Shown in pieces: positions 15,478-58,779 of a stretch of DNA of 64,000 nt; position 1 is the stretch's first letter; the number at the start of each line of letters is the position of its first letter. The translations under genes and the position numbers were made by a program. The notes beneath the pieces are model-generated. The model saw only the letters and a list, made by a program, of their open reading frames with translations. It was not told the DNA's origin and did no database searches. The DNA comes from Hyaloperonospora brassicae (taxonomy: Eukaryota; Oomycota; Peronosporomycetes; Peronosporales; Peronosporaceae), in the NCBI GenBank assembly GCA_947650285.1, contig CANTFL010001426.1:405573-469572 (forward strand). The letters run 5' to 3'.

Positions 15478-15868
15478 TGTAACGGGGCACACCCTTGCGT
15501 AACTTAACGCAAGGGTTTTGGGTGCCCCGACAGACGTACACGTGGCAAGCGAGGAAGCGTAGGTAGGGCAAAAGTAGAGCTGTTATATTAATATAATTAA
15601 GTCTTTAAACTACTGTCTCTTCGTTTGACTTAGTTTAACTATACTAATATAACTGGATGTATGGTGACGTCTCGTCACCACTCATTGCGCGCGTCTTGCG
15701 GCGATTGGTGGGTTGATATCATCACGATATCAACCAATGAACAGACCCTTTGGTCGACCCTTCAATATCACCACTTTGGTGATATTGTTTAAAGAATACC
15801 CATCTTTATATTCTTTATTGTCACTTTCCTTAAAGTGACAATTTCATGGAACGGGCTGCCCCGTTACA
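15478..15868 (-). repeat. 3' LTR of element A
   Basis: This LTR is 391 bp and starts TG, ends CA. It contains at least five perfect hairpins: 9 bp at 15492-15515 (nested in a 7-bp outer stem 15484-15490/15522-15528), 7 bp at 15663-15679, 10 bp at 15711-15735, 10 bp at 15764-15786 and 10 bp at 15818-15841. Confidence 0.97.
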
Positions 15869-15881
15869 TCACCCCCCTTAA
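15869..15881 (-). other. Polypurine tract of element A
   Basis: On the minus strand the bases just before the 3' LTR read TAAGGGGGGTGA, the expected plus-strand DNA primer for Gypsy reverse transcription. Confidence 0.8.
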
Positions 15882-15998
15882 CTGATAGTCACCGTGTGAC
15901 TATCGAAAATATGGAGGCCACCCGTTGGCCACCATTGGGACAGGGAGCACTTGTTGGGTCCGTTCCATTCACTTTCCGCTTGACCTCGCATAGTTAAC

Positions 15999-17606
15999 AT
16001 GTCTATGCGAGGTGACTCAAGACCCACACAGCCCGGTGCTGTGCCAGCCTCTGCGGCAGACGATTCTTCGTCTGCTGCCCCTTCTTCGCCTGCAGCAACA
16101 GGTGCTGCAGGTGCACGCGGTATCACACCGCGTGCGCACGATGACCCTGATTTATAGGTCATCTACTCTGGCGAGTCAGACGTGTCTGACTCGGGCAATG
16201 CTCCAGAGGCGTCTTGCTCACCGGCGACGCCTCAGTATTCGCCAAGACCACTGCCGAACGAACGGACTCGTGATTTGCATCACAGTCTGTTCGGCAGTGA
16301 TGATGATGATCAGGGTGGTGAGGAATTCTTTTCCTCACCACCGCCGGCTCGTGCGTCTTCGCACGAGCGTGATGACGATGGCGCGAGCCGTCGTCAATCT
16401 GGGAGACGTGGTACCGACAAGGGTACCACTGTGAAGCGTGATGAGTCGAAGCCGTGGCGTTTGCCCGAACTGCTCATCAATAGCCTGTCTCACGAGACAG
16501 GCCAACACCATCGAATACCCTTATTCGATGCAACCGAGCTTCACGGCTTGAGTTCCAGCGCGAAGAACTTTCGCGCTGAAGAAGATTTTTATCTCGATGT
16601 CTTCCTTAGACATCGATGGTACAACAGCAACCAAAAGCGTGACAAAACATCGCTTTTGGCTGCGTGGAACGCGTTCGTCCAAAACGTAAAGAATTTTGGA
16701 CGAGAAGGGTGGCTCAAGAAACTTGAGGCGACACGCCTCAGGTTCGAAAGGCGAACGCCAACCGGTGCTAGGTAACGGTTGCATTGTTTATCGAGTGAGG
16801 CAGGCATTCCTTGCCTCACATGGGGAGACCCTTGTGCGAGTTGTGCTGACAACTCGCAACGTGCGCAGAGCGACGTGTATTCCCTAGATTCGCCCTGGGG
16901 AAGAGCACACATCTCGGTTGAGATGCGTGACGCGATTGCGAACTTGCAATCCGTCTACAAGCGCCTAGGGCGCGTGTTTACCGATGGGCCACAGGACTCA
17001 TCGGATGGGTCTCGTCATACTGGCGGACGAGACCTTCAACATCCATCAACAGCTGAGAGCGGGGCTCCCAGCTGTTCCAAGAGGGTGGATACCCCCGCCA
17101 CTGGACGAGGTAGCTCGTCCTTGATCCTGAATCGTCACGGTGATTCAAGATACGCTCCACTAGAAAGCGTTGATCGCCGTGAGCATCCACCAAAGGATGT
17201 GGTGGAGGAGGAAAGACCTCCTCCAGATGATTCGGTTCACCATCTCGACCCTTACGAGATGGATCGCGCAATCGATGAATTGCGCGATGACTTGAAGCAC
17301 GAGCGCGACCGGCGCTACGCTTTGACTGATACCGTGCGGAAGAACCGCAAGGATCACGAGGCTGATCGGGCGAGGGATCGCGCCGATTATGCCACAGCGC
17401 AGCTTCAGGTCGAGCGGGATGTCCGCTCCCTATTCGGCGAGCTGGCGACAGCTCGCGGGGAGATATCTCGGTTGAGTTCCGAGGTATCATATCTGCGCGA
17501 CCAGAAGGATCGTCTGGAGCGCGAACGCAAGAACTTGATGGATGTTCTTGAACGTGGGGGCTATCTTCATCGGAAGAAGAAGGCTCGTACTGACAGTACG
17601 ACCTAA
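15999..17606 (+). pseudogene. Antisense ORF of element A (opposite strand to gag-pol), coiled-coil protein
   Basis: One reading frame of 536 codons runs from ATG 15999 to TAA at 17604-17606, interrupted only by TAG at 16155-16157 and TAA at 16773-16775. The order is: Ala/Ser-rich N-terminus, acidic stretch (GSDDDDQGG), a central conserved block (IPLFDATELHGLSSSAKNFR and NFGREGWLKKLE, about 16515-16730), then a C-terminal coiled coil (about 17250-17560) ending KKKARTDSTT. Its last 629 bases lie opposite the integrase chromodomain frame. In the decayed family-B copy the homologous blocks (53700-53800 and 53895-53940) differ mainly at third codon positions, and that copy has GAG where this one has the TAG at 16155. 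A once-functional protein is therefore likely. No family is recognised. A roadblock, regulatory or RNA-binding role would be guesswork. Confidence 0.7.
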
Positions 17607-19214
17607 GCCTCCCCACGTAAAACATAGGATGCGTGCGCATCTTACGTGGCAATTCGAGTGTGTATGCATTGCCCTTGCGATGCAACACTCGAAATGGTCC
17701 AATGTATTTCGGCAGTAGTTTACTACTGCCGACACTAGTGACTGCATGTCCAGGTAAGTTTACCGTAGACAGTAGTACTAGGTCATTAACCTTAAATGAA
17801 AGAACATTTTCTCTTCCATTCTTGTCTGCGTTCCGTTTCTGACGGTCCATCGCATTTGAGATGGAGTCCTGAACGAAACGGACTACCGCCTCTCGATTCA
17901 GCAGGAAGTTCTCTGCTGACTCTTTGTTTTGTCTTTCAGTGCGCTTCGTGCGCATTGCTAAGAGATTGTTCTCTTCTTCAGCGAGGGTGTCTTCTTCCTC
18001 GCTGGAATAATCGTTGACGATGCTGAATATACCAGCATCGTCATCATCATCCGAGTCAATAATACCGTCGCCGCTATTATTGAGGTGATTTTCTTCATCG
18101 ATGTTGACATTGTCGACATCGGTATCATACGTGACGACGTTAGCGTCGACACGTGATGAGCAAGAGCCAAAACGGTTTTTGCTCGAGCGAGTCCCTCCCC
18201 CCTATCCAAGAGTCACACTCTAGAAGGGCGGGTACACGTGTATGGCGTAAGCCACTCACGCAAAACGGTGTGTGCTGCGTGGAAGCATGCACCGAATTAT
18301 TGATGGCGGATTCCACCATGGGTAGGAATTCGCTCCAACTCGGAAACGAGTGGATATATCCTCGAAGGATCTCTTCGAGGACACGGTTCGCACATTCCGT
18401 CTGACCATCTGTTTCGGGATGGTCAGAAGTAGACATTTGTAATCTTGTTCGCGTCTTCGGGAAACCTGAAGACGAAGTCCATTGAAACGGACTGCCAGCA
18501 CTCTGTCGGAACAGGCAGTGGCTGCAATGGCGCACGGGATGGAGGACTAGGCTTCACCCGTTGACAAACCTCGCAAGCACGTATGTACTTGCGAGCAAAC
18601 TGATACTGGCGGGGCCAGTAAAAGTCACGACTTACCGTGAGGTAAGTCTTTTCCCTTCCACGATGGCCGCTTGTTGGGGCATCGTGACACTCATACATGA
18701 TGCGCAAACGCAAATCATGATGAGCGGGTACGACGACACGAGGCGTGTCGTCGGCAACAGCTGTATAGTACAGCAATCCGTTGCGTGTACTATACCGATC
18801 CGATGAGGATCGGTACAAAGCCGGTAAATCCCTCATGGATTTACTGGATGGATTCACCAAATGATCCATCAATCGCAGAAGATCCTTATCTTCCGCGTAT
18901 GCCTTTCGTACGTCGTCAAGTAAACTTGACGACGGGACACTGACTGACAGTGTCGCAACAGTGGGCTTATCCTCACTGTTGGATTGTGCGTCCGGCTCGA
19001 AATCGGGCCGGCGCGAAAGCGCATCAGCGACGACATTGAGTCGTCCCGGTTTATACTCCACGGAGAAGTTATACTCCGCGAAGAAAGACAGCCACCTCGC
19101 CATTCTTTGCGAGAGGTGTGGGCTGTTTACGGCCGTGCGTAATGACGCATGGTCCGTGTAGACAACAAACGGTCTATCTCCCAAAGAGATAGACGCGGAA
19201 CTTAGCCAGTGCAT
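16978..19214 (-). pseudogene. Integrase with chromodomain, element A (internally deleted)
   Basis: RNase H tail residues (VYTDHASLRT, ADALSRRPDF) lead into the integrase zinc domain (HHCC: H-GHRGREKT..., CEVCQRVK) at about 18560-18720, then the start of the catalytic core (SMDFVFRFPED, about 18460). From there the sequence jumps at about 18435-18455 to TSDHPETDGQT, the Glu-containing end of the core. Compared with element C, about 65-70 residues are missing, including both catalytic Asp positions (the VDR and SDRDPRF motifs). The C-terminal part (16978-17955) contains a GPF/Y-like region and a chromodomain ([20 protein letters not shown], then W-x-S-WEP) at about 17000-17130. Several frameshifts are also present. 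The integrase is non-functional. Confidence 0.85.
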
Positions 19215-20745
19215 ATTTCATGGCAAGGAGTTCCTTGTCATGCACTGGGTAATTACGCTCAGCTGCTTGCAGCTGACGCGACTGATAACAGATGACGCGC
19301 TCCGCGCCATCTGCATCGAACTGCATTAACGCACAGCCGATTGCGAAATCGCTGGCGTCACAGACCACATGAAATGGTCTGTCCTGATCTGCAATCGCCA
19401 AGATCGGCGATTGCATCAAGCTTTGCTTGATACCTTCAAAGGAACGCTGGCACTCAGCGTTCCATGACCACTTGACATTTTTCTTGAGCAGACAAGAAAG
19501 ATGAACAGTCATCTCGGCGTAGTTGCGCGAGTACTTGTGCAAGTACACCGCAAGACCAAGGAACTTCCTTAGTCCCTTGACATCGACTGGCACTGGCCAG
19601 TCGGTGATCGCCTTGATCTTTTCGGGATCAGGGCGTACGCCGTGTTTACCCACGGTGCACCTAAGGAGAGCTAAATCGCTAGCCGCGATTATACACTTCC
19701 TGAGGTTGTCGTACAACTTATACTTGCGCATAAGTTGAAGAACCCGACGAACGTGAGTTCTGTGAACTTCAACGTCCGTCTTTCCGTCCATATCCCGGAT
19801 ATGAACGAACACATCGTCGAAGTAACTCGGTTGCGAAGTCTCGCACCGGTCTCAACACATTGGTGACACATCTGTTGAATGTTGCAGGGGTGTTGCTCAT
19901 CCCCTGAGGCCTCACTAGCCACTCCCACAGCATACCGCTGGGGGTACTCACTGCCGTGAACGGGACGTCCCGTTAACGCATGAGGATCTGATAGGATCCA
20001 TCAGATCCATGGACGAAAAGATGGTACTCTTTGACATACCATCTATGATCACGTCCTTCTTCGGTATCGACGTCTGAGTCGGTACCGTTGCAGCATTCAA
20101 TTTGTTGAATGCGTGCACTATCCGCCACCCTCCTGTGGCCTTTCGCACACAGAAGGTCGGAGAGCTGTGAGGGGATGTTGATTCCCTCACATGGCCCGCT
20201 GCTAAGCGATCGGCAAAGAACTTGTCGATCGCTAGTACTTGTTCACGAGGCAGTGGCCACTGCTTCATGACACATTACTTCGAGCCCGGTTTGAGCTCGA
20301 TCTCGTGTCGAGTGCCTTTGTCCTTAGGCAACTCGCAAGGTACGGATTCAGGGAACACATCCCTGAATTCGATCGAATCCTTATACAAAGGATTTGCCTG
20401 AAGTGACTCCCAGGATTGAGACGTGTATCGTTCAATCTGAGTCTTCTCACCGATGAAGCTTTCGTCCATCGATGAGCTGCTGAGAACCCGTTCGTTCTCA
20501 GCAAACACTGTTGCCGACCGAATGTCGGTCACATACTCATCCTCTGTGACGAGTATGCAGATCTGCTTGACTTTGCCACTACGCAGATCACGCAAGAACC
20601 GTTTCGGTTCTAGCGTTGGCAACTGAGTTATCTCCGAAGTCAACTTCGGAGGCACAATCAGATCAAGCGTATAAGCGCCTACGCTTGATCCGTCATTAAC
20701 CAAGACGTTCAACGTCTCGGTTTCTTCCTGGGAACTTGCTTCCAC
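19174..20745 (-). pseudogene. Reverse transcriptase and RNase H, element A (broken)
   Basis: The RT start (KQWPLPREQVLAIDKFF, SSPTFCVRKATGGWRIVHAF) lies near 20080-20268. The catalytic SYFDDVFVHI lies at about 19805-19832, and the connection and RNase H (CDASDFAIGCALMQF, VHDKELLAMKYALAKF) at 19180-19500. Breaks: TAA at 20275-20277 where the sister copy has TAC; a frameshift after SSMDLMD near 20000; a frameshift just before the YFDD motif near 19835; and another near 19200. The two frameshifts near 20000 and 19835 are shared with the family-B copy at 57100-57320. Confidence 0.88.
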
Positions 20746-20763
20746 AGGTTGCTGAGGGCCTAA

Positions 20764-21609
20764 TCACTCAGCAAGCGACTCTTGGGGAATTCCTTCCTCA
20801 AGTACGTGGGGACTTATTCCCTCGACGTCTTCCGACTGTGGCTGTGCAACCACAGTCAGGCACCGATCCTCTACGGTCGACTCTCCAGTCGACCTAGGAT
20901 TTTCATGTTGCCCCTTGGGGGCAACAGATTTCTTTCTTCTAAGATGCTGCCCGCTAGGCATGCATCCATGTCCCGGTCCACTCGACTTATTCGAGTGGTG
21001 GACCTTCGGCGCCGCCTGTACATCTGTACAGCCGCCGGGAGCTTGCTCCACAGTGTAGTGATCAACTACACTATGATCTTGTGCAGTCGTGCTAACGACC
21101 GTACCGCAAGTGAGGCCATCGCACTCACTCGCAGAACATCCACACGCTTGTGGACGCTCCAAGATGTTCATCAGATGGCCATCTGATGAACAAGAAGCAG
21201 ACATCTTCACGGATCGATGCTGCCAGCTCACCCTTGGCTCGTACTTTCTGAGCCAAGGTAATCCCAGGATGACATCAAATTTGTCATCCAGATCCAATAC
21301 GATGAAGTCATCATCGTACTGTTCGCCCTCTAACGTGTAGTGGATTCCTACTACACGTTTCTCAACGGTTATCGATGCGCCTGTGGCGAGGCACACTGTC
21401 ATCCTCGTTGAAGGAATGTCGCGCTCAATGAACTTGAGCCTACGACCCTCTAGTGACTGGCGACGAACAAAGTTGTTCGACGCCCCACAGTCTACTAGGG
21501 CACGAAGCGACAAATCATTTGTCGCTTCCAACTTCAAGGTGATGAGCGAAACGTCATCACCAGGTGCAGAGACACACAATGATTGTGTATCTAGAGCAAC
21601 CTTCGTCAA
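20764..21609 (-). pseudogene. Retropepsin-like protease and linker, element A
   Basis: The flap and active-site region reads LVDCGASNNFV, in which the usual Asp-Ser-Gly is Asp-Cys-Gly. The DVILGLPWLRKYEP motif typical of Gypsy proteases follows about 75 residues later. The frame ends at a TGA at 20764-20766, where the sister copy keeps a sense codon and continues into RT, so the linker is cut by a nonsense mutation. Confidence 0.85.
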
Positions 21610-21659
21610 GAGATTTACAAATTCTCTTGAGGTTGCTGGATCAGTAGGGCGCTCCGCCC

Positions 21660-22807
21660 CTACTGACCCCGACCATTTTTTGATGGTCCGTCTCGCTGTT
21701 GCGGCTTCGCAACAGCGCTGGACCCACGACCATTGCCCTTTCTGGCGAATGGTCGTCCATTTCGCTCAGTACTGTTTGGTACTGGGCGTGGAGCACTACA
21801 CTCGTATGCGTAGTGCCCTAACTTCTGACAGCGATTGCACCTCTGCAATCGCTTGTTGTTCGAAGAGCGAGGTCTCTCGCTCTCAACATAGCAGAGGTCC
21901 ATTGGTTCTGGACCTCCGATCTCTTGTCGTCTCGGTGGACGATAAGAGTTTAAGCTAGCATGAGCCTGTCTCATGCTAAAGTCTTCCTGTTCCGCGGCTG
22001 ATATCGCATCTTCCAGCGTATTCAGCTCAAGGCGGAACAGGTGGCTCCTGACGGACCCCTCTGCGAGCCCTTGCATGAAAACCGTACTCAACGTGTGTTC
22101 ATGTACTGGGTTAGCAGTTATACTACTCGCAAGGAGTCGTATATGTTGTGCGTAAGCGTGCACATCACGCTTACCCTATTTGAGTTTCAGGAGCTCTGAA
22201 CGAGCCCTGAACTCAGCCCGTGGCGGCTCAAACGTTTGTCTGAGCCGGGACTTGAAGTCATCTGGCGACCTAAACACGTTTGGGTCGCTACTCTCGAGTC
22301 CCAGGGACCAAGTTTTGGCACGCCCTGCCAAGTGGGTCTGAGCAAATGTGAGTTTCATTTGCTCATCTTCGACGCGACGAGCCCTTAGGGCTCTGTCGAG
22401 TTCGACAAACCACAGTAACAGGGAGTCTTCCGGGACTCCACTGTACTTGGAGATGTCAACTTTCATGACTTCGGGACGACGCGCATGCGCCGTCCCGCCC
22501 ACAGCAGCATGGAATTGCTGCTGTCTCAACAGCTCCGTCTGTTGAGCACCGAGTTCTCTCAACTGCTCGGCCTGTTGAGAGCCTTGCTGGTGAAGCAAGG
22601 CTACTTGTCCCTCTCGAGAGCAAGTTCATTCTGAATGAACTTGGCAATAGCGGCATGTTGTTGGTCTCTGTCTAGAGACTCCAACATGGCGCTAACGACG
22701 AGATCGCCTACGGTAGAACTCATTCGTTCTACCGCACCCCATTCGATGTCACTCAAGTGGGTAAACCCTTCATGCGTGGCGTGAAAGGTCCCTTCATCAT
22801 CCAACAT
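21660..22807 (-). pseudogene. Gag with zinc knuckle, element A (broken)
   Basis: ATG at 22805-22807 opens an N-terminal helical region. A one-base shift near 22605 moves to the main Gag frame (capsid-like helices with VDISKYSGVPEDSLLLWFVE). A CAG-to-TAG change at 22176-22178 interrupts it; the family-B copy has CAG. The C-terminal third contains a CCHC zinc knuckle, CNRCQKLGHYAYEC, at about 21800-21840, preceded by the EPMDLCY motif. The Gag would coat the element RNA. Confidence 0.88.
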
Positions 22808-22842
22808 GTTCAGGTTGGATGTTGTGGTCCTTGGAAGGACTA

Positions 22843-22855
22843 CAAAGTGCTACCA
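22843..22855 (-). other. Primer binding site of element A
   Basis: Two bases inside the 5' LTR the minus strand reads TGGTAGCACTTTG, beginning with the TGG expected to pair with a tRNA CCA end. The first eight bases (TGGTAGCA) fit an initiator-Met type primer. A similar GGTAGCACTT follows the element C LTR at 28940. Confidence 0.65.
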
Positions 22856-22857
22856 GG

Positions 22858-23248
22858 TGTAACGGGGCACACCCTTGCGTAACTTAACGCAAGGGTTTTG
22901 GGTGCCCCGACAGACGTACACGTGGCAAGCGAGGAAGCGTAGGTAGGGCAAAAGTAGAGCTGTTATATTAATATAATTAAGTCTTTAAACTACTGTCTCT
23001 TCGTTTGACTTAGTTTAACTATACTAATATAACTGGATGTATGGTGACGTCTCGTCACCACTCATTGCGCGCGTCTTGCGGCGATTGGTGGGTTGATATC
23101 ATCACGATATCAACCAATGAACAGACCCTTTGGTCGACCCTTCAATATCACCACTTTGGTGATATTGTTTAAAGAATACCCATCTTTATATTCTTTATTG
23201 TCACTTTCCTTAAAGTGACAATTTCATGTAACGGGCTGCCCCGTTACA
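22858..23248 (-). repeat. 5' LTR of element A
   Basis: This LTR is 391 bp and identical to the 3' LTR except for one base (T at 23229 where the other has G). It is followed by the target duplication CAGAA. Confidence 0.97.
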
Positions 23249-28285: not shown

Positions 28286-28450
28286 CTCCTTGTAACGGAG
28301 CGCACCCCTTGCGTGAGCTTAACGCAAGGGTGACGTGTGCCCGACAAGCGTACACAGGGCAACCGAGGAATCGGTAGGCAAAACAGAACCCGAAAGCTCT
28401 TTTCTGAGGGAATAGTAGAACTGTTTATTGAATATAGGTATTACGTTAGT

Positions 28451-28936
28451 TGTAACGGGGTGACACGTCGACTGGTAGTCGACGATAGGTGTGGTGCACA
28501 CAAGAGAGGGGGTACCCTAAAAGTAATTTTAGAACACAGTGAGTGTATCAATTGTTGAAGACTGATGTCTGTCAACAATTGATTACGAGATCTTTAGAGA
28601 GGTTTTACTTTGAACCTTAGTGACTAGGTTAAGTACGTTGTTCTATGGTCTTCTTTATGTTTAAAGAAGAAATAAAATTCAGTTCCCCTTTTGATCAATA
28701 AGAGACACGTGCCTTACGAGGCTTCTTTGATCGGGAGGACAAAAGCAACGCCTGTAAAGGTAGCTTGTCCTCGAGCACTCTGTGCTGTGATTCGTTTGAA
28801 TCGTTTGGTCCCTCTAGAACGGGGACCGTTAGCTCTCTGAGTTATTGACTCTCTGAGTCGAGTTCTGTGAACTAAAGTTGCTCGTGAGAGCGTTAAAGTC
28901 TTCCTCTGACTTAAGGAGCTGTGTAGCTCCGCTACA
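28451..28936 (+). repeat. 5' LTR of element C
   Basis: This LTR is 486 bp, TGTAACGGGG...GCTACA. It has many short hairpins, such as 28466-28473/28477-28484 (8 bp) and 28549-28558/28572-28581 (10 bp). A primer-site-like GGTAGCACTT follows at about 28940. Confidence 0.93.
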
Positions 28937-28994
28937 CTAGGTAGCACTTGTAGTCGATCTACGCTTGAGTCGTTACGACTGACCCTCTGCGAGG

Positions 28995-30017
28995 ATGGAG
29001 CAATCCACACCCCTCAATGAGGCCCAAAAGGGTGTGCTAGATAAGCTAACCGCGGCCGTAGGCCCAGAATATGTTGAGTTTCTCGCTGCACAAGGTCCCG
29101 ACGTGCTCAATGCTCGTGTCGAGACCTTTATGCAGTATGAAACGGCCCTTTTAGGGCAGGTTCAAAACCAGGTAGCGTCGGGTATGCCCACACGCTTTGT
29201 GGCTATGCCAGACAAAGAGGATAAGCCTTGTCCCCTTAAGGTGGACGTCAAGCATTTCTCCGGAAAGGAGGGTGTAAACCTCATCCTCTGGATCCTTGAG
29301 ATCGAGATGGCCATGAGATCTGGCTTGATCTCAGTCGAGCATCAGCGAGTATCGCTGGCGATCTCAATACTCGATGGAAGAGCTAGAGATTACGCTCTGA
29401 CGTGCGGCACGTCGGTCGACTTGGCGTTTCCCACATGAAATTCGCTCAAGCTAGACCTGTTGCGAGTTTTCTCGCCGCCCAACCAGGCCTATCGCGTGCG
29501 TTCACGCTTCTTGTCCACCCGTCAGGGTAAGAACGAGTTAACGGACTATGTCCAAGAGTTGAGAACTCTGATATCTGCCATGCAGTCTGACCCTCTCCCT
29601 GAGACTGTCTGAGTGACAGTCTTTATGGAAGGTCTCCGCAATGGCGCTGCCAGGACCGAGGTGTTTCGAGTCCATCCCTCGACTTTCGAAGAGGCTGTGA
29701 TCATCGCTCAAAATGCTGAGCATAACTACGCGTCAGCAAGACTTGGTTGGAATGGGTACAACCCAAGCTTTGCGAGAGCAACCTCTGCAAGCACCTCGGC
29801 TTACTGTAAGCCAGAACCGATGGATCTCAGCTATGCTGAAGATGAAGGTGAAGCGGATCTTCATGTTGCAGAGCAACGACAGGAAGTGAGACGTTGTTAT
29901 ACGTGTGGAAGCACCAAACATCTACGCCCCACTTGTCCTTTGCGTAAGCAACAACGTAACCCTATGGGCCGCAACCAGAAACCTGGTATGGCACGGGGAA
30001 ACGTCGACACCCAGTAG
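28995..30017 (+). pseudogene. Gag with zinc knuckle, element C
   Basis: One frame of 341 codons from ATG 28995 is interrupted by TGA at 29436-29438 and TGA at 29610-29612. The contexts suggest Trp (TGG) and Arg (CGA) originally. Capsid-like helices are followed by EPMDLSYAED and a CCHC knuckle, CYTCGSTKHLRPTC, at about 29895-29940. It is homologous to the element A Gag. Confidence 0.87.
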
Positions 30018-30103
30018 GCGCGGGGTGCCCTACTGGGGTAGAACTGAGTTCTGTCACTTCTCTACGAGGTAGAGCAAAATAGGGCTTAGCCCCACAGAGC
30101 TCC

Positions 30104-30907
30104 GTGCCAGCAAGCACAGAGCGTGGATACAAGCCTGGCTTGTTGGTCGCCGAGGCGATAGTTAAAGGCTTTGAGAAGCACTGGTCGATATTAATCGATT
30201 CTGGGGCGTCATGGAATTATGCTAGACGCCGTTCCCTTGAGGGGAGTCAGCAATATGCTGAGGCGCGTAAAGCGCACGAAGGTGATTCCATCACTGTTCG
30301 GTTAGCGACGGGTAGTCGCGTTACTGTGCCTAAAGTTCCGTTGAACTTGGGCGTGAAGTTTTTGGACTTTGATAGCACAGAACGCTGTCTTGTCCTTGAC
30401 TTGGATTCGAGATACGATCTCATCCTAGGCATGGCCTGGCTTGAACGCTATGAACCATGGATCGATTTGAGGTCTAAGACCTTAGGCGCAACGCGCAATG
30501 TTCCTAGTGAAGTTTTGGAGAGTCATGAACCCACCTTCGCTAGGCAACAAAAGCGCTATTGGCGCAAGCCAATGACGGAAGATGTCAATGTGCTGGACAT
30601 TGGTATGTCGGAGTTGATTAACTCGAATGTCTATGACATCCATATTGAGCGGAACTCTTACACCGTATGTGAAGAGAGTTGTACTCCGTTGAATGATACT
30701 CGTTGTGATAATGAGTCACTGCATGCTATTAGCATGATTGGCCAAGGGCCGAGACATCAAGAATGTACTTCCTCTGATGTGAGTGGGGTGGCACGTGAAA
30801 TTCCACCGAGTGAGGGTGGCCGAGTTGGCACCAAACTGAATGTCGGTAATGACATTGTTGGCGATAAGACCAGAGCATACAGGGCTAGACCCGGATGCTG
30901 GTCGTGA
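30104..30907 (+). CDS. Aspartic protease region, element C
   Basis: This open frame of 267 codons has the active-site motif LIDSGASWNY (Asp-Ser-Gly intact), LATGSRVTVP and the downstream DLILGMAWLERYEPW typical of Gypsy retropepsins. It lies in a different frame from Gag. The first Met is not necessarily the natural start, because protease is normally part of a polyprotein. Open space to about 31450 forms the linker to RT but carries stops. Confidence 0.8.
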   Translation: MPASTERGYKPGLLVAEAIVKGFEKHWSILIDSGASWNYARRRSLEGSQQYAEARKAHEGDSITVRLATGSRVTVPKVPLNLGVKFLDFDSTERCLVLDLDSRYDLILGMAWLERYEPWIDLRSKTLGATRNVPSEVLESHEPTFARQQKRYWRKPMTEDVNVLDIGMSELINSNVYDIHIERNSYTVCEESCTPLNDTRCDNESLHAISMIGQGPRHQECTSSDVSGVAREIPPSEGGRVGTKLNVGNDIVGDKTRAYRARPGCWS

Positions 30908-31451
30908 AGTGGTACGTGTAAATCCACTGGGTGAAGTGTTCGATGTTACGTAACACTTCACCAGATGTCGATCAAGACATGAGCTCTCGTATAGAGCGTG
31001 CTATAGCAGATAGCAACTACAGGGACCCTACTTTCCCGGCCTCTAGGAGGCGTAAGGTTTCTTTGAGGAAACAATCTCGGCGTCGGGTGGCAACTGTCAA
31101 GCGCCAGACGTCCGAGATGTTAAGGAGTGATAATGGTAATAATACACTATATACACTTGTCAATGGAATGACCGGCCATGTTGCTGGCAACATTACTCTT
31201 GAGACTCTTCCTTCTCTAGATAGTCTCTTTGAACTAGATGAAATGTCTGATGGCAAATTCAGCCAAGCCTTAAAGGCAGGATAGTTATTCGACTTAGTGG
31301 TCATTCGACCCGATGTTGAGTTAAACTCATCCTCTTTATTGGACGAGTCAGTCCTTGAGGACACAAAGGCAACACTTAATTCGCGTAGTGGATCATCGAT
31401 CTTAAGGATCGTCTTGATCCGTTTTATCCTTTAGTAAAGTAATTTCAAGAC

Positions 31452-32542
31452 GTGGTGTGTCACGACCCACCGTCTGTCTTACCTCCGGATAGAGGTGTGC
31501 GTCATGAAATTGACCTAGTACCTGGAACTAAATACTGCGTAACACGGCAGTGGCCTTTACCAAAGGAGAAGTGTGACGTCATAGACGACTTCTTTCGTGC
31601 AAAGCACGCAGCGGGGATGGTTCGTGAGAGCAAATCTCTTCATTCCACGCCCACATTTTGTGTCCGAAAGCCCAATGAGAAGTGGCGCATTGTTCATGCT
31701 TACAATAAGCTTAATGCTGCTACCATCCCGGCTCAGACACCAATCTATAGGAAAAATGTTCTTCGAACAACATGGTGGGATGTACAATGTACAGTGCGCT
31801 CGACTTAGTCAATGGTTATTACCAATTGCTCCTGCGTGAGAAGGATATTCCGCTGACAGCGGTCAGTACCCCGAGCGGTATGCTCTGGGAGTGGCTAGTT
31901 ATGCCACAGGGCTTGTCCGATGCCCCAGCTACTTCAATCGTCTTGTGACACAACTGTTTCGTGCTCACCGAGTTTATGTACATACTTACTTACTTAGATG
32001 ACATTTTTGTCCATAGTCGTGCTATGAACGGCCGGTCTGATGTGGATAATCACATCGACCATTTAAGAGCAGTGCTCGAGTGCATGCGCACGAACAAGTT
32101 GTATGCCAACGCCTCTAAGTGCATCTTTGGTGCACAAGAGATTCCCTTTTTAGAATGCTTCATTGGAAAGCGTGGTCTTAGAGCGGATTTTACAAAGATA
32201 AAAGCCATAGTCGATTGGCCGGTTCCTAAGAACCAAAAGGACCTACGTAAGTGGCTTGGTCTCGCCAATTACTTACACAAGTATAGTGCAAACTATGCAG
32301 ACATGGCTCGGTCATTATCCAATCTCCTTAAAAAGGATATGGAGTGGTGCTGGACTAACACCGAGCATGAAGCCTCTACGGCGTTTAAAGAGAGTCTTAT
32401 TCATGCGCCAATCTTGGCTTTGCCCGATCCTGATCGGCCTTTCAGTGTCGTCTGTGACGCATCTGACTTTGCCATCGGCAGTGCTCTGTTACAAACAGAT
32501 GATAACGGACGGGAATGCGTCATTGTGTTTCAGTCCCGATAG
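31452..32542 (+). pseudogene. Reverse transcriptase, element C (broken)
   Basis: The fingers region (RHEIDLVPGTKYC, SKSLHSTPTFCVRKPNEKW) is at 31500-31790. A frame change leads to the palm (SALDLVNGYYQLLLREKD, TPSGMLWEWLVMPQG) at 31790-31930. A base missing near 31932 shifts again before the catalytic TYLDDIFVHSR at about 31985-32020. RNase H begins with CDASDFAIGSALLQ. TAG at 32540-32542, in the context QSR-stop-LKAAE, replaces a Gln codon. Confidence 0.88.
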
Positions 32543-32593
32543 CTAAAAGCAGCTGAGAAGAACTATCCAGTTCATGACAAAGAGCTGCTTGCG

Positions 32594-34516
32594 ATGAAGT
32601 ATGCTTTAGTCAAATTCAGAGTTCATCTGCTTGGCTCTAAGCCTTTTGTGATCTATACAGATCATGCGTCATTACGCACTGCGACCCAGTCGCCACATCT
32701 CTCTCAGCGAATGGCCCGTTGGCTCTCATTTTTTGCCGAATACAACTTCGAGGTGAAGTATAAGCCGGGCAAGCAGAATGCTTTGGCTAATGCGTTGTCA
32801 CGTAGGCCTGACTATGATCTCGCTCATGTTACGACTCTGTCATCATCGGTCACAGACCTCCTTCGTTCGGCATATGCCAAAGATGAATATTGTGTAGCTT
32901 TGCTACGTGCTCTGGGGAGCAAAGAGTTTAACGACTCAGACATTAAATTGTCGGCACGTTTGCGTGCGAGGCTACATCGATACTCCATCGATCAAGGCCT
33001 GTTGTGCTATAGCACAGATATGGAGGATACTCCCCGTATCGTTGTCCCTCATGATGAGGAATTGAAGTATCGCATCCTCTATGAGGCGCATGATACTGCG
33101 GTGAGCGGTCATCTCGGTCGAGAAAAGACATATAGCTCCGTGAGCCAATACTATTGGTGGCCCAAACTTTACAAATGGGTAGGCACATACGTGCGTTTGT
33201 GCGAAACGTGTCAACTGGTGAAACGCTCAGCTCATGCGGCTGCGCCGCTCGCTAGTCTCCCTATACCCTCTGGGTGCTGGGAGTCCATCAGCATGGATTT
33301 CATGTTCGCTCTGCCGAAAGATGTACAAGGCAATACGGGTATCGTGGTCTTTGTTGACCGTTTGAGCAAGATGGCTCACTTGGTGGCTGTGCCAGATATC
33401 ATTGATGGTGAAGGTACAGCTACGCTGTTTATCGATAGAGTGTTTCGACAGCACGGCTTGCCTGTGGCAATTGTCTCTGACCGAGATCCCCGCTTCACTG
33501 GGAAGTTTTGGAAGTCCATCTTCAAGGTGCTCGGCACACATTTGGACATGTTCACGGCGGATCACCCGCAGACCGATGGTCAAACCGAGCGAGTCAATCG
33601 CGTTATCGGTGACATATTACGCAGTGTTTGCGCTAATACACCAAAACATTGGAGTTCGATGCTCTCTGTTGTTGAGTTTGCGTTGAATAACGTTGTGCAC
33701 GCCTCTATCGGCTTTACTCCGTTCTACATAAACGGTCTCACACACCCTCGCGTTCCGTTAACGCTACCACTGCGTGGTTCAGGGCTTGGTGGGGGAGAGA
33801 TGGCCGATCGGCTTGCAGATATCAGCCCTGCTACTGTTCACAAACAGGTAAGCGAGTTTCTTGTAACGCGCTTGAATGTGTTACGACACGTGCGTGATGC
33901 ACTGGCTGATAGCCAAGATAAACAAAAGGAGCAAGCTGATGTTAAAGGCAGAGGATGTATTGAACGTTATAAGGTCGGAGACCAAGTTCTACTCAATGCT
34001 AAAAACCTACCTACAAATGTAGTCTCTGCTGTCTTCAAGACAAAGTTGCGTCCGCGCTTCATTGGGCAGTTCACGGTCATCGCTAAGAAGGGATTGGCGT
34101 ACACGCTCAACCTTTCGCGCAAACTGCGCACGCACCCAGTGTTCTACGTTGGCTTGCTTAAGCCGTATCTGGACCCGTCCCATGTGAACTCGGAGGCGCT
34201 TGCGCCTGGAATTAAGGCCTTGACGTCGACTGTTGCATCCGAACCAGGAGGTCAAGCTGGCCATCCACACGGGCTAAGGCCAACTCCAACGCCTGAACAC
34301 GGGCTTGCATCGCGCCGAGTTCATTCTGGGTCTTACCCAATGTCTCTCGGAGACCACTCAGCTCAAGGAGCACCTCATCATACTCCTCCTTCGGTACCCC
34401 GACCACCACCGACGCTGCTCGGTGAGCAAGGGAACCACCAGTTCCATGTGGAGAAAATCCTTCAGCGACGTCGTCGTCGTGGCCAATACCAGTATCTGGT
34501 GAAGTGGCGAGGGTAA
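32594..34516 (+). CDS. RNase H C-terminus and integrase with chromodomain start, element C
   Basis: This is a 640-codon open frame continuing the RT frame after the TAG. It holds RNase H residues (YTDHASLRT, ADALSRRP-like NALSRRPDY), the integrase zinc domain (H-GHLGREKTYS..., CETCQLVK), and the full DDE core: VFVDRLSKM, VSDRDPRF and the TDGQTERVNR glutamate region. The C-terminal GPF/Y-like segment (LNLSRKLRTHPVFYVGLLKPY) is followed by a Pro-rich linker and the first half of a chromodomain (FHVEKILQ...YQYLVKWRG). A stop comes right after WRG, where the domain should continue with WEP, so the chromodomain is truncated. This is the best preserved integrase in the window. Confidence 0.9.
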   Translation: MKYALVKFRVHLLGSKPFVIYTDHASLRTATQSPHLSQRMARWLSFFAEYNFEVKYKPGKQNALANALSRRPDYDLAHVTTLSSSVTDLLRSAYAKDEYCVALLRALGSKEFNDSDIKLSARLRARLHRYSIDQGLLCYSTDMEDTPRIVVPHDEELKYRILYEAHDTAVSGHLGREKTYSSVSQYYWWPKLYKWVGTYVRLCETCQLVKRSAHAAAPLASLPIPSGCWESISMDFMFALPKDVQGNTGIVVFVDRLSKMAHLVAVPDIIDGEGTATLFIDRVFRQHGLPVAIVSDRDPRFTGKFWKSIFKVLGTHLDMFTADHPQTDGQTERVNRVIGDILRSVCANTPKHWSSMLSVVEFALNNVVHASIGFTPFYINGLTHPRVPLTLPLRGSGLGGGEMADRLADISPATVHKQVSEFLVTRLNVLRHVRDALADSQDKQKEQADVKGRGCIERYKVGDQVLLNAKNLPTNVVSAVFKTKLRPRFIGQFTVIAKKGLAYTLNLSRKLRTHPVFYVGLLKPYLDPSHVNSEALAPGIKALTSTVASEPGGQAGHPHGLRPTPTPEHGLASRRVHSGSYPMSLGDHSAQGAPHHTPPSVPRPPPTLLGEQGNHQFHVEKILQRRRRRGQYQYLVKWRG

Positions 34517-35459
34517 CCGGAGTCGGAGAACTCGTGGGAGTATGAGATAGCCCTTCGACAGGACTGCCCTTACGCCGTGGATTTTTTTAAAACATCGTGA
34601 CCAGGGTCGCCTTGCGAACGAGAACGCTTCTCACCAATAGTGGTGGGAGGTAGCGTGTTGCTCCGCACCTTAGGGTAGTGACCCGTGATTGTCATTGTAG
34701 CCGGAGCATAACGCGTACGTGTACGCAACTGACCCCTGGCCTTGAGTTTGGCATACTCGAACCGAAGCTTTCGTTCCAACCGAACGTCGGCCACATCGGC
34801 GCTGGCCCGCAGCGCTGGCACACTGCTAAAGTGTCGCTTGCGATACACCCAACGGATAAACTGATTGTCCTCCTCCTCGGGCAGTTCGCCAGTGAACAAC
34901 AAGATGGGCACGCCCTTAATCGGTCGAACCGAGACACCACGAGACAAGCTCTCAAGATGCGCGCGGTACTGACCTTGCGTGGTAAAGAATGTTTCGAGAA
35001 TCTCTCATTTAGAGCCTGACGAACGGCTATATCTTCTGGCGACGTAGCCGCGGGGCCCATGGCATATGTTGAAAGGCTACGGCCTTCCGTTTGACGGAGG
35101 CGTTGCTCCACCTCAGGTGTTGTAAACACGTAACCACTCCGGTTTTGAATAGCCGTCTGGGTATGAGTGCGACGTAGAGCACGCTTCTCACGCTGGAGGG
35201 TTAACTCCTGTTGCTCGTCGAGCGGGTTTGTGATGATGTTCTCATCCGCATCTTTTGTTTGATGCTGCGCCCCTGGCGCTGTGGTAACACCACGTCTAAC
35301 GAACGGATTCGGTGCTGTTAGAGGTCTAGCCTCCGATACAGCGGAGTGGGACGATATCCCTTCATCTCCAGGGACACTGGTATCACTACCATAGTCCACA
35401 TCCTCATTAAGACCGAGGTAGGAGGAAAGAGTTTGAGACTCGTTGGGTGGCGATGCCAT
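34212..35459 (-). pseudogene. Antisense ORF of element C, coiled-coil protein
   Basis: ATG at 35457-35459 opens a frame running through Ser-rich and Gln/Arg-rich segments. A one-base shift near 34985 leads to a second segment (YRAHLESLSRG, then VPILLFTGELPEEEDNQF, WVYRKRH). A slip at the seven-T run 34582-34588 leads to a third with a clear leucine-heptad coiled coil (VLLELSGLRETL...LELALARVDGQLDLLV), ending at 34212. With two single-base corrections it would span about 415 codons. It lies between integrase and 3' LTR, and its coiled coil sits opposite the integrase tail and chromodomain (34212-34516), as in element A. The middle P-x-LF-x-x-EL...EED pattern is also faintly shared with the element A protein. 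No known family is recognised. Confidence 0.6.
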
Positions 35460-35551
35460 GGTGTTTCGTGTTTTGCCACCGTGAGGTTAAGCGCACACAC
35501 ACCGACCTCTTCGAGGAAAGAAATTGATTGACGTTTTCTGGTAACGTCAGT

Positions 35552-35565
35552 CTGGTGGGGGAGGG
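35552..35565 (+). other. Polypurine tract of element C
   Basis: GGTGGGGGAGGG directly abuts the 3' LTR start at 35566. Confidence 0.75.
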
Positions 35566-36051
35566 TGTAACGGGGTTACACGTCGACTGGTAGTCGACGA
35601 TAGGTGTGGTGCACACAAGAAAGGGATACCCTGTAAAGTGATAGTAGAACACTGTAAGTGTATCAATTGTTGAAGACTGATGTCTGTCAACAATTGATTA
35701 CGAGATCTTTAGAGAGGTTTTACTTTAAACCTTAGTGACTAGGTTAAGTACGTTGTTCTATGGTGTTCTTTAGGTATAAAGAAGAAATAAAATTCAGTTC
35801 CCCTTTTGATCAATAAGAGGCACTTGCCTTACGAGGCGTCTTTGATCGGGAGGACAAAAGCAACGCCTGTAAAGGTAGCTTGTCCTCGAGCACTCTGTGC
35901 TGTGATTCGTTTGAATCGTTTGGTCCCTCTAGAACGGGGACCGTTAGCTCTCTGAGCTATTGACTCTCTGAGTCGAGTTCTGTGAACTAAAGTTGCTCGT
36001 GAGAGCGTTAAAGTCTTCCTCTGACTTAAGGAGCTGTGTAGCTCCGCTACA
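35566..36051 (+). repeat. 3' LTR of element C
   Basis: This LTR is 486 bp, the same length as the 5' LTR, with about 20 substitutions relative to it. It ends GCTCCGCTACA. Confidence 0.93.
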
Positions 36052-36379
36052 TTAATATTCATCTTTGATTTACATTAATTATATTAAACTACTTTCTTCT
36101 ATGTGTGTCCCTTGCTCACCACCCATTGCGCGCGTCCAGCAGCGATTGGTGGTTGAGGTGGTTGATGAATACTGTACATCAACCGAGAAGTGGACGCCTC
36201 CACGCTTATTATCGTTAGCGATAATAATCAGACAACATCACTCATTTCGAGTGATGTTGATTGAATATTATCAAAACTGATAATATGCAAAAATTGGTAC
36301 TTTTGTACCAATTTTTATGTAACGGGCTCACCCCGTTACACTCCTACTGCGCTACACACTCGGTTTGCAACAGGTTATG

Positions 36380-52480: not shown

Positions 52481-52920
52481 TGTAATGGGGCACGCATTTT
52501 GTCAGCTCGACACAAGGTTGTGTGCATCCGACGTTACGTGCACGTGGCGAGGAAGCGCAGCGAAGTAGGCAGAGCTCGAAAGATTTGTCTAAGGGAAAAA
52601 GTACAAGTGTTATTTAATATAGTTAAGCTTCTTACTAAATCATCATTCGCCTTATTCTAACTTCGTTAAACTACCATCTCTTATGTGGGTATCTTTCTCA
52701 CCACCAATTGCGCGCGTCCAGCAGCGAGTGGTGGTTTATTTGGTTGATGTCGATAATACATTAACCAAGAAGTAGATCACCTACGAAAATAACCCTTAGG
52801 GGTGAAATTCCGACAACATCTCCTCTTCTCGAGTGATATTGATTAAATATTATCTAAATAGATAATACTAAAAAATTGACACTTTCTATCATTTTTATGT
52901 AAAGGGCTTACCCCGTAACA
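52481..52920 (-). repeat. Decayed 3' LTR, family B
   Basis: This LTR is 440 bp, TGTAATGGGG...CCCCGTAACA, matching the split LTR 28291-28450/36052-36340. Several hairpins that are perfect there are mismatched here. A C-run at 52924-52932 is the polypurine tract on the minus strand. Confidence 0.88.
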
Positions 52921-53039
52921 TTACCCCCCCCCTCAACCATCAGTCACCTTTGTGAGAGATTTCGATTGGTGACAAAACGATTACCGTGGTGTTGCTCTGG
53001 GTACAGGGAGCACTTGTGAATTTTTTCTACCATTCCAGG

Positions 53040-54720
53040 TTTTCAGCGCATGACGAGTCCGTACATGCTCTGCGCAAATAAAACCGCAACGGAAGAGGCT
53101 GCAAGGATGAGTGTAGCCGGAGAACAATCTGTCCAAGAATCAGAGAAACAGGGGTCACGTCACCTTCTGCTTCCAGCAAGCATACTGCGAAACCATTAGT
53201 TGCAGGAGCCCGTGGTCATCCACTTGCAGCTCCTTCACCCGCAGCTTCGTCTGCGGGTGGTAGTCCCATGACCCATGAATCCAAATTAGAGGTAGTCTAT
53301 TCGGTCAAGTCGGAATCTTCCGACTCGAAGCCATCCGTAAAAATCGACCGTAAGGTTATTAAAACGACGACTACTGCTCTTCGCCACAGCCTCGGTTAAA
53401 ATTTACGCTATTAGACGGTCGGTTCATCCGCCGATTCTGAGAATTCATCGCCTGGACTAAACCGGAAACGCTAGTATTTGTACGAAGCGAGTGTAAAACA
53501 TGAGGACGGAATTCCTCATGAGAATGTTAGTGACTCTTCGCGGAGTTATTGTTGCCATAGTCGCAGCAATACTGGGTATCGCGGCGATCGTGGTGGCAGC
53601 TCTCATATTGGCACCACGCAGAAAGAGAAATTCCGCAACGCGTTGCGATCTTTTCATGATAACAAGCCATGTATGCCTACCTTAAGCGAATTAAGAGGGT
53701 GGTTTGGCTGTACCACTGGGAGTTCTCGAATCCTACTCTTTGACTCGTCAAGGATTCATGGACTTGATCCCAGTGCGAAAAATTATCGCACTCGGCATCA
53801 TTGTTAATCGATACCTATTTCAGAAATAAATGGTACTACGGTAACCACAAGCGAGTCGAAACTTTATTGTTTCAGGCGTGAAATGATTTCATCGGCAAAT
53901 TTAAAAATGTTGGCCGTGACAATTGGCTAAAGAGGCAGGTTTCCTTGCCTCTCGTAGTGTCAATCGTCAGATTTGTGTTGACAGCTCTGTTTGTGGCCCT
54001 AGGAAGGAACACCTCTTTAATTAACTCTATGGAAGGGCGCGCATCTCGTCTGAGATGCTTTAAGTGATTGAGAACCTACAATCCCTTTAAGAACGCGGCG
54101 GGCGTTCGTATGACGATGGTCATTTATCTTTAAAGGGTGTGTCTTGTCGTACAGCTCGACGAGACTGAGCACATCCTTCATTAGCTGGGAGCGGGGCTCC
54201 ATGCAGTTCCACGACGGTGGATTCACCCGCCACTGGACAAGGTAAGTCGTCCTTGATCCTGTATCGTCACGGTGGTACAAGATAGGCTCCACCAGGAAGC
54301 TTTGACCCCGTGTGAGTCTACCGAAGATTGTGGAGAAGGAGGTAAACTCCTCCAGGTCGTTCTGCTCACCATCTTGACCCGCACTAGACGGATTCCGCAA
54401 TTGTTTGATTGCGCGAGGATATGGAGCACGAGTGGGAGAGGGGCTAGGCTCTGAACGATTCTGTGCGGCAAAAATGCAAGGGTCGTCAGGCTGATCGGGC
54501 CTTGAATCGTGCCGAATACGCCCTCGCCCAACTTCAGGTCGAGCGCAATGTCCGACTCCTCGATGAAGAGACGGGGATAGCTTGTAGAGATATCTCTCAG
54601 CTGAGTTTTAAGTCTCTTCACCCCGCGTCCAGAATGAACGTCTAGAGCGCGAGTACAAGACCTAATCGAGAATCTTGTACGTAGGGGATATCTTCATCGT
54701 AAGAAGAAGGTAAGAACTGA
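53040..54720 (+). pseudogene. Antisense-ORF remnant, family-B element
   Basis: Plus-strand fragments align with the element A antisense protein: LEVVYSVKSESSDS at about 53296 (the site of the element A TAG reads GAG here), RHSLG at about 53380, RILLFDSSRIHGLDPSAKNY at 53727-53795, FKNVGRDNWLKRQ at about 53896-53935, and coiled-coil remnants near 54480-54650. Amino-acid changes are conservative and many codon differences are synonymous. Numerous stops make it a pseudogene. Confidence 0.65.
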
Positions 54721-54779
54721 CAGTACGAAGGAAATGAACCTCATAAAAGGTAGACTTTTTACACATTCCAAGCGGAAGC

Positions 54780-58680: not shown

Positions 58681-58779
58681 CTGTGGCGAGGCACACTGTC
58701 ATCCTCGTTGAAGGAATGTCGCGCTCAATGAACTTATGTCTACGACCCTCTAGTAACTGGAGACAAACATTGTTTTTTC

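What the first reader, a model, noticed from the sequence alone, without database searches (positions are those of the whole stretch)
15478..23248. Hairpin-paved retrotransposon: back-to-back perfect short inverted repeats through LTRs and coding DNA
Element A is built from consecutive perfect hairpins. Stems of 8 bp or more between 16173 and 16858, read by hand (stem arms): 16173-16181/16184-16192, 16206-16213/16226-16233, 16249-16259/16289-16299, 16318-16325/16331-16338, 16347-16355/16360-16368, 16408-16415/16422-16429, 16483-16491/16494-16502, 16509-16517/16522-16530, 16556-16564/16570-16578, 16594-16602/16608-16616, 16631-16639/16651-16659, 16676-16684/16694-16702, 16795-16802/16812-16819, 16835-16844/16849-16858. 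That is 14 in 686 bp. With equal base use, a perfect 8-bp stem with a loop under about 12 nt is expected well under once in this length. The LTRs and pol look the same (for example 18917-18940, 19170-19192). Host genes in the window do not show this. Possible causes: ordered RNA structure for packaging or reverse transcription, resistance to silencing, or template switching that perfects quasi-palindromes.
Basis: seen in the sequence. Interest (0 to 1): 0.9.

Follow-up and report, generated by a model that had tools for sequence, protein, structure and literature searches.

The report
Retrotransposons paved with short hairpins
A family of jumping genes in this genome has its sequence, protein-coding parts included, sculpted into a chain of tiny perfect hairpins that look to be held there by natural selection, with far more built-in folding than structured RNA viruses are reported to have.

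Summary
All 14 listed stems are perfect. Element A, a Ty3/Gypsy element with a chromodomain, has 95 perfect stems of 8 bp or more; dinucleotide shuffles give 2.0 and host DNA is at chance. Six near-full copies hold 100-117. Synonymous-codon shuffles remove the effect: pol 57 versus 1.8.

A sister-family copy (L070) has 106. Against it, compensated double changes number 31 versus 5.5 expected, and synonymous change in arms is about a third of that outside. Among 32 copies, hairpin-breaking variants decline with frequency, while singletons show no push toward pairing: selection, not mutational perfecting.

The window's other Gypsy element (28451-36054) is paved too, mainly with 5-bp stems and 3-5-nt loops. 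A Copia piece and a rumen Gypsy are not.

Stems show no clear G.U preference and folding excess is near 50% on both strands. My inference: both strands are kept folded so that sense and antisense RNAs anneal poorly. That function is unproven. Nine paper searches listed no such report.

The parts
15478..23248 (-). Element A, Ty3/Gypsy family 1, gag-pol on the minus strand, flanked by CAGAA on both sides; lacks about 0.2 kb (near 18440) that six near-full copies have
   Evidence: LTRs 390 of 391 identical; flanks; alignment to six copies
15478..15868 (-). left LTR (3' LTR of the genomic RNA), with seven hairpins
22858..23248 (-). right LTR (5' LTR of the genomic RNA), with seven hairpins, the last one ending exactly at the LTR end
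15869..15880 (-). purine-rich tract next to the 3' LTR (probable PPT, by eye)
   Evidence: sequence printed
22838..22857 (-). probable primer-binding site next to the 5' LTR (by eye, TGG after two bases)
   Evidence: sequence printed
22176..22598 (-). gag piece
   Evidence: Retrotrans_gag, Ty3_capsid
21660..22163 (-). gag zinc knuckle piece
   Evidence: zf-CCHC below or near cut-offs
20764..21609 (-). aspartyl protease piece
   Evidence: RVP_2
19174..19812 (-). RNase H piece
   Evidence: RT_RNaseH_2, RT_RNaseH
18423..19214 (-). integrase zinc-binding piece
   Evidence: Integrase_H2C2
16978..17955 (-). integrase C-terminus and chromodomain
   Evidence: SH3_Tf2-1, Chromo
16182..17606 (+). antisense ORF in two pieces (16182-16775, 16779-17606); 540 codons open in four of six near-full copies
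15491..23248 (.). 146 non-overlapping local hairpins, arms 7-13 bp
   Evidence: list; 95 perfect stems of 8 bp or more
28451..36054 (+). Gypsy family 2 element, paved mainly with 5-6-bp hairpins (137 vs 39.4 at 5 bp or more, loop 3-9)
28297..28448 (.). part of a family-3 LTR, the other part being 36049-36340
   Evidence: 92% identity to the LTR of L070
36049..36340 (.). rest of the family-3 LTR, with hairpins that match family 1 in place but not in sequence
52481..60404 (-). copy B, decayed relative of element A (84.7% identical over 4.0 kb), 32 perfect stems vs 1.9 over 52600-60404

Best explanation
SHOWN by computation: Ty3/Gypsy elements of this genome (families 1, 2 and 3) carry a dense chain of short, local, perfectly Watson-Crick hairpins through LTRs, gag, pol and an antisense ORF. 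In the coding parts they are built with codon choice. In families 1 and 3 they are held by purifying and compensatory evolution. Hairpin size differs by family (about 8-13 bp against about 5 bp), and the pattern is alike on both strands. INFERRED: selection keeps BOTH complementary strands folded into short-loop hairpins, so that the genomic RNA and a convergent antisense transcript anneal slowly and come apart easily and do not make the long duplex that Dicer would cut; the stems themselves (13 bp or less) are too short for Dicer (recalled). NOT SHOWN: that an antisense transcript exists, that RNA silencing is the selecting agent, or that the hairpins form in cells.
For: Density and shuffles. 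Compensated double changes 31 vs 5.5 expected, max 13 of 1000 shuffles; synonymous change in arms 6.3% vs 18.6% in pol and 12.0% vs 44.6% in gag. Inherited variants depleted in arms, singletons much less so; breaking variants fall from 33% (singletons) to 11% (frequency 3 or more), random 43.5% (repeated on the outgroup background). G.T and A.C mismatches equal (15:15 in L063); folding excess 50.7% and 48.9% on the two strands of family 1, 46.0% and 43.6% of family 3. ORFs on both strands. [quoted passage not shown] In Phytophthora infestans small RNAs of both senses map along two Gypsy families (PMC3522703, passages); that this host is an oomycete is only my guess.
Against: Family 2 has the same kind of antisense ORF but only 5-bp stems. 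Its arm conservation at synonymous sites is not significant (8.7% vs 12.5%, P 0.15) and it shows 2 compensated vs 1 non-compensated double change. Its codon register is unbiased (33/31/23). The same simulation study says hairpins slow annealing less than they speed melting. One-sided changes lean slightly to G.T in some sets (41 vs 34; 49 vs 41; 25 vs 18). No transcript or small-RNA data. Perfect pairing on one strand is automatically perfect on the other, so symmetry alone cannot prove selection on both.
Confidence: 0.42

Rival explanations
1. Structure of the genomic RNA alone is selected: packaging by Gag, orderly reverse transcription, or shielding from small RNAs and nucleases, as proposed for genome-scale ordered RNA structure in viruses. 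Strand symmetry is a by-product of perfect pairing.
For: Hairpins run through the whole transcribed unit; folding excess is slightly higher on the genomic strand in families 1 and 3 (50.7 vs 48.9%, 46.0 vs 43.6%); selection on pairing is shown; one-sided changes lean slightly to G.T in some sets.
Against: No clear tolerance of G.U over A.C: 15:15 in L063 stems, 44:41 among copy variants, both at chance in family 2. In family 2 the folding excess is higher on the antisense strand (20.3 vs 16.5%).
Confidence: 0.28
2. Template switching or hairpin conversion during reverse transcription rewrites one arm from the other, perfecting quasi-palindromes without any function, as was suggested for the coding palindromes of Nematomorpha mitochondria.
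For: Perfect pairing without G.U preference; LTR arms diverge as fast as the rest (29.8 vs 30.2%) with 10 compensated vs 2 non-compensated doubles; in family 2 one-mismatch stems are not in excess for G.T or A.C.
Against: Singletons improve hairpins no more than random changes (7.2 vs 7.1%; 6.6 vs 8.0%). Copy B has few stems left (32). Family 2 stems stop at 5-6 bp, with longer ones rarer than chance extension (24 and 3 of 141, P 0.03 and 0.04). A Copia piece of the same genome has none. Many singletons arose after insertion, so a process confined to reverse transcription is weakened rather than excluded.
Confidence: 0.13
3. The hairpins serve a single-stranded DNA stage (cDNA protection, RNase H or strand-transfer steps) or cruciform DNA.
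For: Hairpins fold well as DNA (z = -10.7 for 16173-16372); strand symmetry suits DNA.
Against: No evidence tells DNA from RNA here; only one cDNA strand is single-stranded for long (recalled).
Confidence: 0.08
4. Chance, base composition, codon bias or an assembly artefact.
For: None found.
Against: Dinucleotide and synonymous shuffles; six near-full copies and 29 pol pieces; a sister family with compensatory changes.
Confidence: 0.01

Closest known systems
Genome-scale ordered RNA structure (GORS) of positive-strand RNA viruses (PMC7642675, passages)
   Same: Folding energy in excess through the whole genome, coding parts included, made of many local stem-loops; depends on base order, not composition.
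   Different: Excess is near 50% here, against about 15% for SARS-CoV-2 and 23.4% for the highest coronavirus in that paper (methods differ). Here stems are short and mostly perfect, alike on both strands, of family-specific size, and kept in place with compensatory changes at 88% identity, whereas the paper calls GORS poorly conserved in position. The carrier is an LTR retrotransposon.
Coding palindromes in mitochondrial genes of Nematomorpha (PMC6649704, abstract and discussion)
   Same: Perfect inverted repeats inside functional coding sequence, with unequal codon phases.
   Different: There the repeats are long (up to 284 bp), gained and lost, and the authors favour a conversion or template-switching process. 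Here stems are 5-13 bp, pave the element, and changes bear marks of selection.
Both-strand structure of RNA phages such as Q-beta (recalled; one search did not return it)
   Same: Both complementary RNA strands folded so that they do not anneal.
   Different: Phage RNA copied by an RNA-dependent RNA polymerase; here a retrotransposon. Recalled only.
Oomycete Ty3/Gypsy elements with chromodomain (Chronos; PMC5348765, passages)
   Same: gag-pol of Ty3/Gypsy type with a chromodomain.
   Different: The words palindrom*, hairpin and antisense do not occur in that paper's main text. Membership was not tested, and that this host is an oomycete is my guess.

Membership tests
Ty3/Gypsy LTR retrotransposon with chromodomain | LTR pair TG...CA with target-site duplication | tested here: met
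   390 of 391 identical, TGTAAC...GTTACA, CAGAA on both sides
Ty3/Gypsy LTR retrotransposon with chromodomain | gag, protease, RT, RNase H, integrase in this order, then chromodomain | tested here: met
   Pfam matches in order in A; RT itself gave no Pfam match in A's piece 19948-20268 but RVT_1 matches near-full copies, e.g. C18:470736-471233
Chronos (oomycete chromodomain Gypsy with plant-related RNase H) | plant-related (archaeal-type) RNase H domain | not tested
   only the chromodomain was checked
GORS | folding excess over shuffled controls along the genome | tested here: met
   50.7% and 48.9% in 31 windows of 250 nt per strand
GORS | structures poorly conserved in position between relatives | tested here: not met
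   pairs kept in place between families 1 and 3: 91.2% of 1370 pairs still Watson-Crick, shuffled 87.2%
GORS | genome of an RNA virus | tested here: not met
   LTR retrotransposon
Coding palindromes as in Nematomorpha mitochondria | long perfect inverted repeats (tens to hundreds of bp) | tested here: not met
   longest stem 13 bp among 167 hairpins of L063
Coding palindromes as in Nematomorpha mitochondria | arm identity kept by conversion rather than selection (authors' proposal) | tested here: inconclusive
   singletons show no push toward pairing; a process confined to reverse transcription not excluded
Pre-miRNA or other Dicer-fed hairpin loci | stem long enough for Dicer (about 20 bp or more, recalled) | tested here: not met
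   stems 7-13 bp
Both-strand structured RNA (Q-beta type) | both strands folded without G.U preference | tested here: met
   with slight G.T leanings in some sets
Both-strand structured RNA (Q-beta type) | both strands exist as RNA in the cell | not testable with these tools
   ORFs on both strands only

The most novel reading that the evidence does not exclude
A retrotransposon lineage has evolved a strand-symmetric hairpin code: through codon choice the whole element is written as short perfect hairpins of a family-specific size (about 5 bp in one family, about 10 bp in others) so that its sense and antisense RNAs cannot pair. It would be a sequence-wide way of escaping RNA interference that needs no protein and can be seen in DNA sequence alone.
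Probability: 0.33. Interest if true: 0.95.

Novelty: new variant of a known kind. Interest (0 to 1): 0.88.

Why it matters
It shows that a whole 8-kb protein-coding element can be written as perfect hairpins while its proteins are kept, at an intensity about twice the highest coronavirus value in the GORS paper consulted. Two related families in one genome with different hairpin sizes, a Copia piece without them, and a decayed copy that has lost most make a natural experiment on why transposons evolve structured RNA. The trait is a sequence-only signature that can be looked for in other genomes, and it offers a direct test of whether structure protects transposons from RNA silencing.

Tried and rejected
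Chance, composition and codon bias were rejected by dinucleotide and synonymous shuffles. A first thought that family 2 is an unpaved control (2 stems of 8 bp or more vs 0-4 in ten shuffles) was wrong: shorter stems showed it to be paved. A versus B was uninformative for compensation (14 compensated, 14 non-compensated doubles) because B is decayed. The badly aligned stretch 391-1100 of family 1 vs 3 (28 compensated, 19 not) was left out of the statistics. The 'fixed' class is biased by its background, so the test was repeated on the outgroup background. The synonymous arm test in family 2 was not significant (P 0.15). The codon-register bias of family-1 pol is not seen in the other three ORFs of L063 nor in family-2 pol. 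GNRA and UNCG loops are few. Relatives in IMG/VR: none in 2 scans. GTDB genomes: one 39% relative, in a rumen MAG contig, not paved. The LTR-pair figure 0.345 for L064 comes from a one-base offset and was not used.
Full report
WHAT IS THERE. Element A (15478-23248) is an LTR retrotransposon of the Ty3/Gypsy kind with gag-pol on the minus strand. Its LTRs differ at 1 of 391 positions, CAGAA stands on both sides, and Pfam finds gag, zinc knuckle, aspartyl protease, RNase H, integrase zinc-binding, SH3_Tf2-1 and chromodomain in order. A purine tract and a probable primer-binding site (by eye) agree that the minus strand is the genomic RNA. An ORF lies antisense over the 3' part: in two pieces in A, 540 codons open in four of six near-full copies, 539 in a fifth and 329 in the sixth. 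A's frames are broken; it is 96-98% identical to six near-full copies in its longer aligned block and lacks about 0.2 kb.

THE OBSERVATION. 14 of 14 listed stems are perfect. A holds 95 perfect stems of 8 bp or more (loop 2-20) against 2.0 in 20 dinucleotide shuffles (max 6). Three host stretches of 13, 4 and 14 kb hold 4, 1 and 4 against 2.9, 1.1 and 3.2. With occasional mismatches allowed, 146 hairpins put 36% of the bases in arms. Six near-full copies (L061-L066) hold 100-117 perfect stems; 29 pol pieces (L032-L060) hold 43-53 in 3.6 kb where A's own piece (L031) holds 38. The old copy B keeps 32 against 1.9. Hairpins fade as copies decay.

NOT A CODING SIDE EFFECT. In copy L063, 30 synonymous shuffles each give means of 1.8 stems in pol against 57 seen, 0.6 against 14 in gag, 0.3 against 10 in the 3' ORF and 1.0 against 25 in the antisense ORF. 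In pol the codon register in which third positions face each other is under-used (36/13/36, P 0.002), as expected if synonymous sites did the building. The bias is not evident in the other three ORFs nor in family-2 pol (33/31/23).

GEOMETRY. In L063 stems are 7-13 bp and loops mostly 2-10 nt. Inverted repeats of 9 bp or more number 80 with spacers of 2-20 nt (0-1 in 5 shuffles), 9 with 21-60 (0-2), 0 with 61-120 (1-4) and 3 with 121-200 (2-4). The pattern is local.

A SECOND FORM. The window's other Gypsy element (28451-36054, family 2) first looked nearly unpaved: it has 8 stems of 8 bp or more against 1.8, and an intact copy (L069) has 2 against 0-4. But L069's folding energy is in excess by 16.5% and 20.3% on its two strands, and shorter stems explain it: 170 hairpins of 5 bp or more (loop 3-9) against 39, none of 8 bp or more; the window copy has 137 against 39. 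The excess sits at 5-bp stems with loops of 3, 4 and 5 (51 vs 3.7, 32 vs 2.7, 19 vs 4.0). Thirty synonymous shuffles give 16.4 (max 29) where 87 are seen in pol, 3.5 vs 19 in gag and 4.7 vs 28 in the antisense ORF; 106 of 141 closing pairs are pyrimidine-purine. Longer stems are rarer than chance extension would give (24 of 141 at 6 bp or more, P 0.03; 3 at 7 or more, P 0.04). Another family-2 piece (L073) shows the same (31 vs 8.4). A Copia piece (L074, 801 bp) shows nothing. One more Gypsy family (L075, 801 bp) shows a slight excess (7 vs 2.7, shuffle max 6). A Gypsy in a rumen MAG contig (L076) is at chance for 5-bp stems (25 vs 28.0) with 7 vs 2.7 at 7 bp or more and 3.7% folding excess. 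Bins of 2 kb along the window pick out A and the family-2 element, and more weakly B, by hairpin count alone.

SELECTION. The family-3 copy L070 (LTR about 62% identical to family 1; 88% over a 7.0-kb block; most of pol 96% identical as protein, the antisense ORF 62%) has 106 perfect stems against 0-5 in ten shuffles. Between families 1 and 3, leaving out one badly aligned stretch, 43 of 1370 pairs changed on both sides where 6.9 are expected if independent; 31 of the 43 are compensated, against 5.5 after shuffling partners (max 13 of 1000). Synonymous change is 6.3% in arms vs 18.6% outside in pol, 12.0% vs 44.6% in gag and 30% vs 59% in a short part of the 3' ORF (P 7e-8, 2e-8, 0.02); arms were defined on family 1 alone. 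In the LTR, where both sides are free, arms diverge as fast as the rest (29.8% vs 30.2%). Family 2 gives weaker signs: L069 against the window copy, arms 5.2% vs 8.1%, 2 compensated and 1 non-compensated double, synonymous 8.7% vs 12.5%, P 0.15.

SELECTION OR MUTATION? Among 32 family-1 copies over 3.6 kb (three duplicate loci dropped), derived singletons lie in arms in 126 of 379 cases (arms are 39.5% of sites), frequency 2 in 10 of 37, 3-9 in 3 of 38, 10 or more in 12 of 60 and fixed in 33 of 144. Singletons improve hairpins as often as random changes (7.2% vs 7.1%) and break them somewhat less (32.7% vs 43.5%); variants at frequency 3 or more break them in 11.3%. On the outgroup background: singletons 6.6% improving vs 8.0% random; breaking 16.2% at frequency 3-9 and 8.3% at 10 or more, random 42.6% and 42.3%. 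A mutational perfecting process should show among new variants and does not. Many singletons arose after insertion, so a process confined to reverse transcription is weakened rather than excluded.

BOTH STRANDS. If only one RNA strand were selected, G.U should be tolerated over A.C. Mismatches inside stems are 15 G.T and 15 A.C in L063, and 15 and 16 in A (counted by me from the list). One-sided changes between families 1 and 3 are 41 and 34 (plus strand of A), variants among copies 44 and 41, one-mismatch 8-bp stems 49 and 41, family-2 changes 25 and 18. In family 2 both types of one-mismatch 5-bp stem sit at the chance level (36 vs 36.6, 28 vs 31.1). Folding excess is 50.7% and 48.9% in family 1, 46.0% and 43.6% in family 3, and -0.5% and 0.2% in two host stretches.

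HOW IT MAY WORK. What needs both strands folded? I think a pair of complementary RNAs that must not anneal. The elements carry ORFs on both strands. [quoted passage not shown] In Phytophthora infestans small RNAs of both senses map along two Gypsy families (PMC3522703, passages). Stems of at most 13 bp would not feed Dicer (recalled). The chain from both-strand folding to escape from silencing is inference. What ranks it above one-strand packaging or shielding is the lack of clear G.U tolerance and the symmetry; what weighs against it is that family 2, with the same kind of antisense ORF, gets by with 5-bp stems.

COMPARISON. GORS viruses are nearest in effect: SARS-CoV-2 about 15%, highest coronavirus 23.4% (PMC7642675, passages); shuffling methods differ, so the comparison with about 50% is rough. 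Coding palindromes of Nematomorpha mitochondria (PMC6649704, abstract and discussion) are nearest in appearance. A maize study links miRNA-like structure in transposons with small RNAs (PMC10760457, abstract), and the yeast Ty3 genome has a mapped RNA structure with a well-folded core of about 20% (PMC11381356, passages). Nine full-text searches listed no paper that, by title and start of abstract, describes hairpin paving of a retrotransposon; each listed only its top 5-25 papers, and most subscription papers and bioRxiv preprints are not in that library.

LIMITS. One genome, unnamed. Family 3 rests on one copy, family 2 on one intact copy, the window copy and one piece. No expression, probing or small-RNA data. 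The homologous-protein database was off.

Noticed in passing
28297-28448 and 36049-36340: The family-2 element appears to sit inside a family-3 LTR: the two flanking stretches match positions 1-152 and 147-438 of that LTR, overlapping by 6 bases like a target-site duplication.
   Followed up: partly
52481-60404: Copy B has unlike LTRs: the right one 96% identical to family 1, the left one 75.5% identical to the family-3 LTR, and the bases outside them do not match. Its right LTR is much closer to A (96%) than its pol (85%) or 3' part (70%), which suggests a composite.
   Followed up: partly
L063 and other near-full copies: gag, pol and the 3' ORF lie in three different frames that overlap end to start in L063 (399-codon-scale gag, 1339-codon pol, 411-codon 3' ORF), while other copies show longer open frames of 1605 or 1666 codons. 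Frameshifting was not studied.
   Followed up: no
16978-17606: Both strands are open over about 0.6 kb: integrase C-terminus and chromodomain on the minus strand, coiled-coil-like antisense ORF on the plus strand.
   Followed up: no
L069, 141 mini-hairpins: Closing pairs are pyrimidine-purine in 106 of 141 and the outer pair of the 5-bp stem is G-C in 66 of 141, a weak strand-symmetric motif.
   Followed up: no
L076 (JAEEHM010000116.1): A eukaryote-type Gypsy element lies in a contig filed as a rumen Bacillota MAG, probably a contaminant.
   Followed up: partly
9340-12477: Host gene for a presequence-protease-like M16 peptidase, 1045 codons, minus strand.
   Followed up: no
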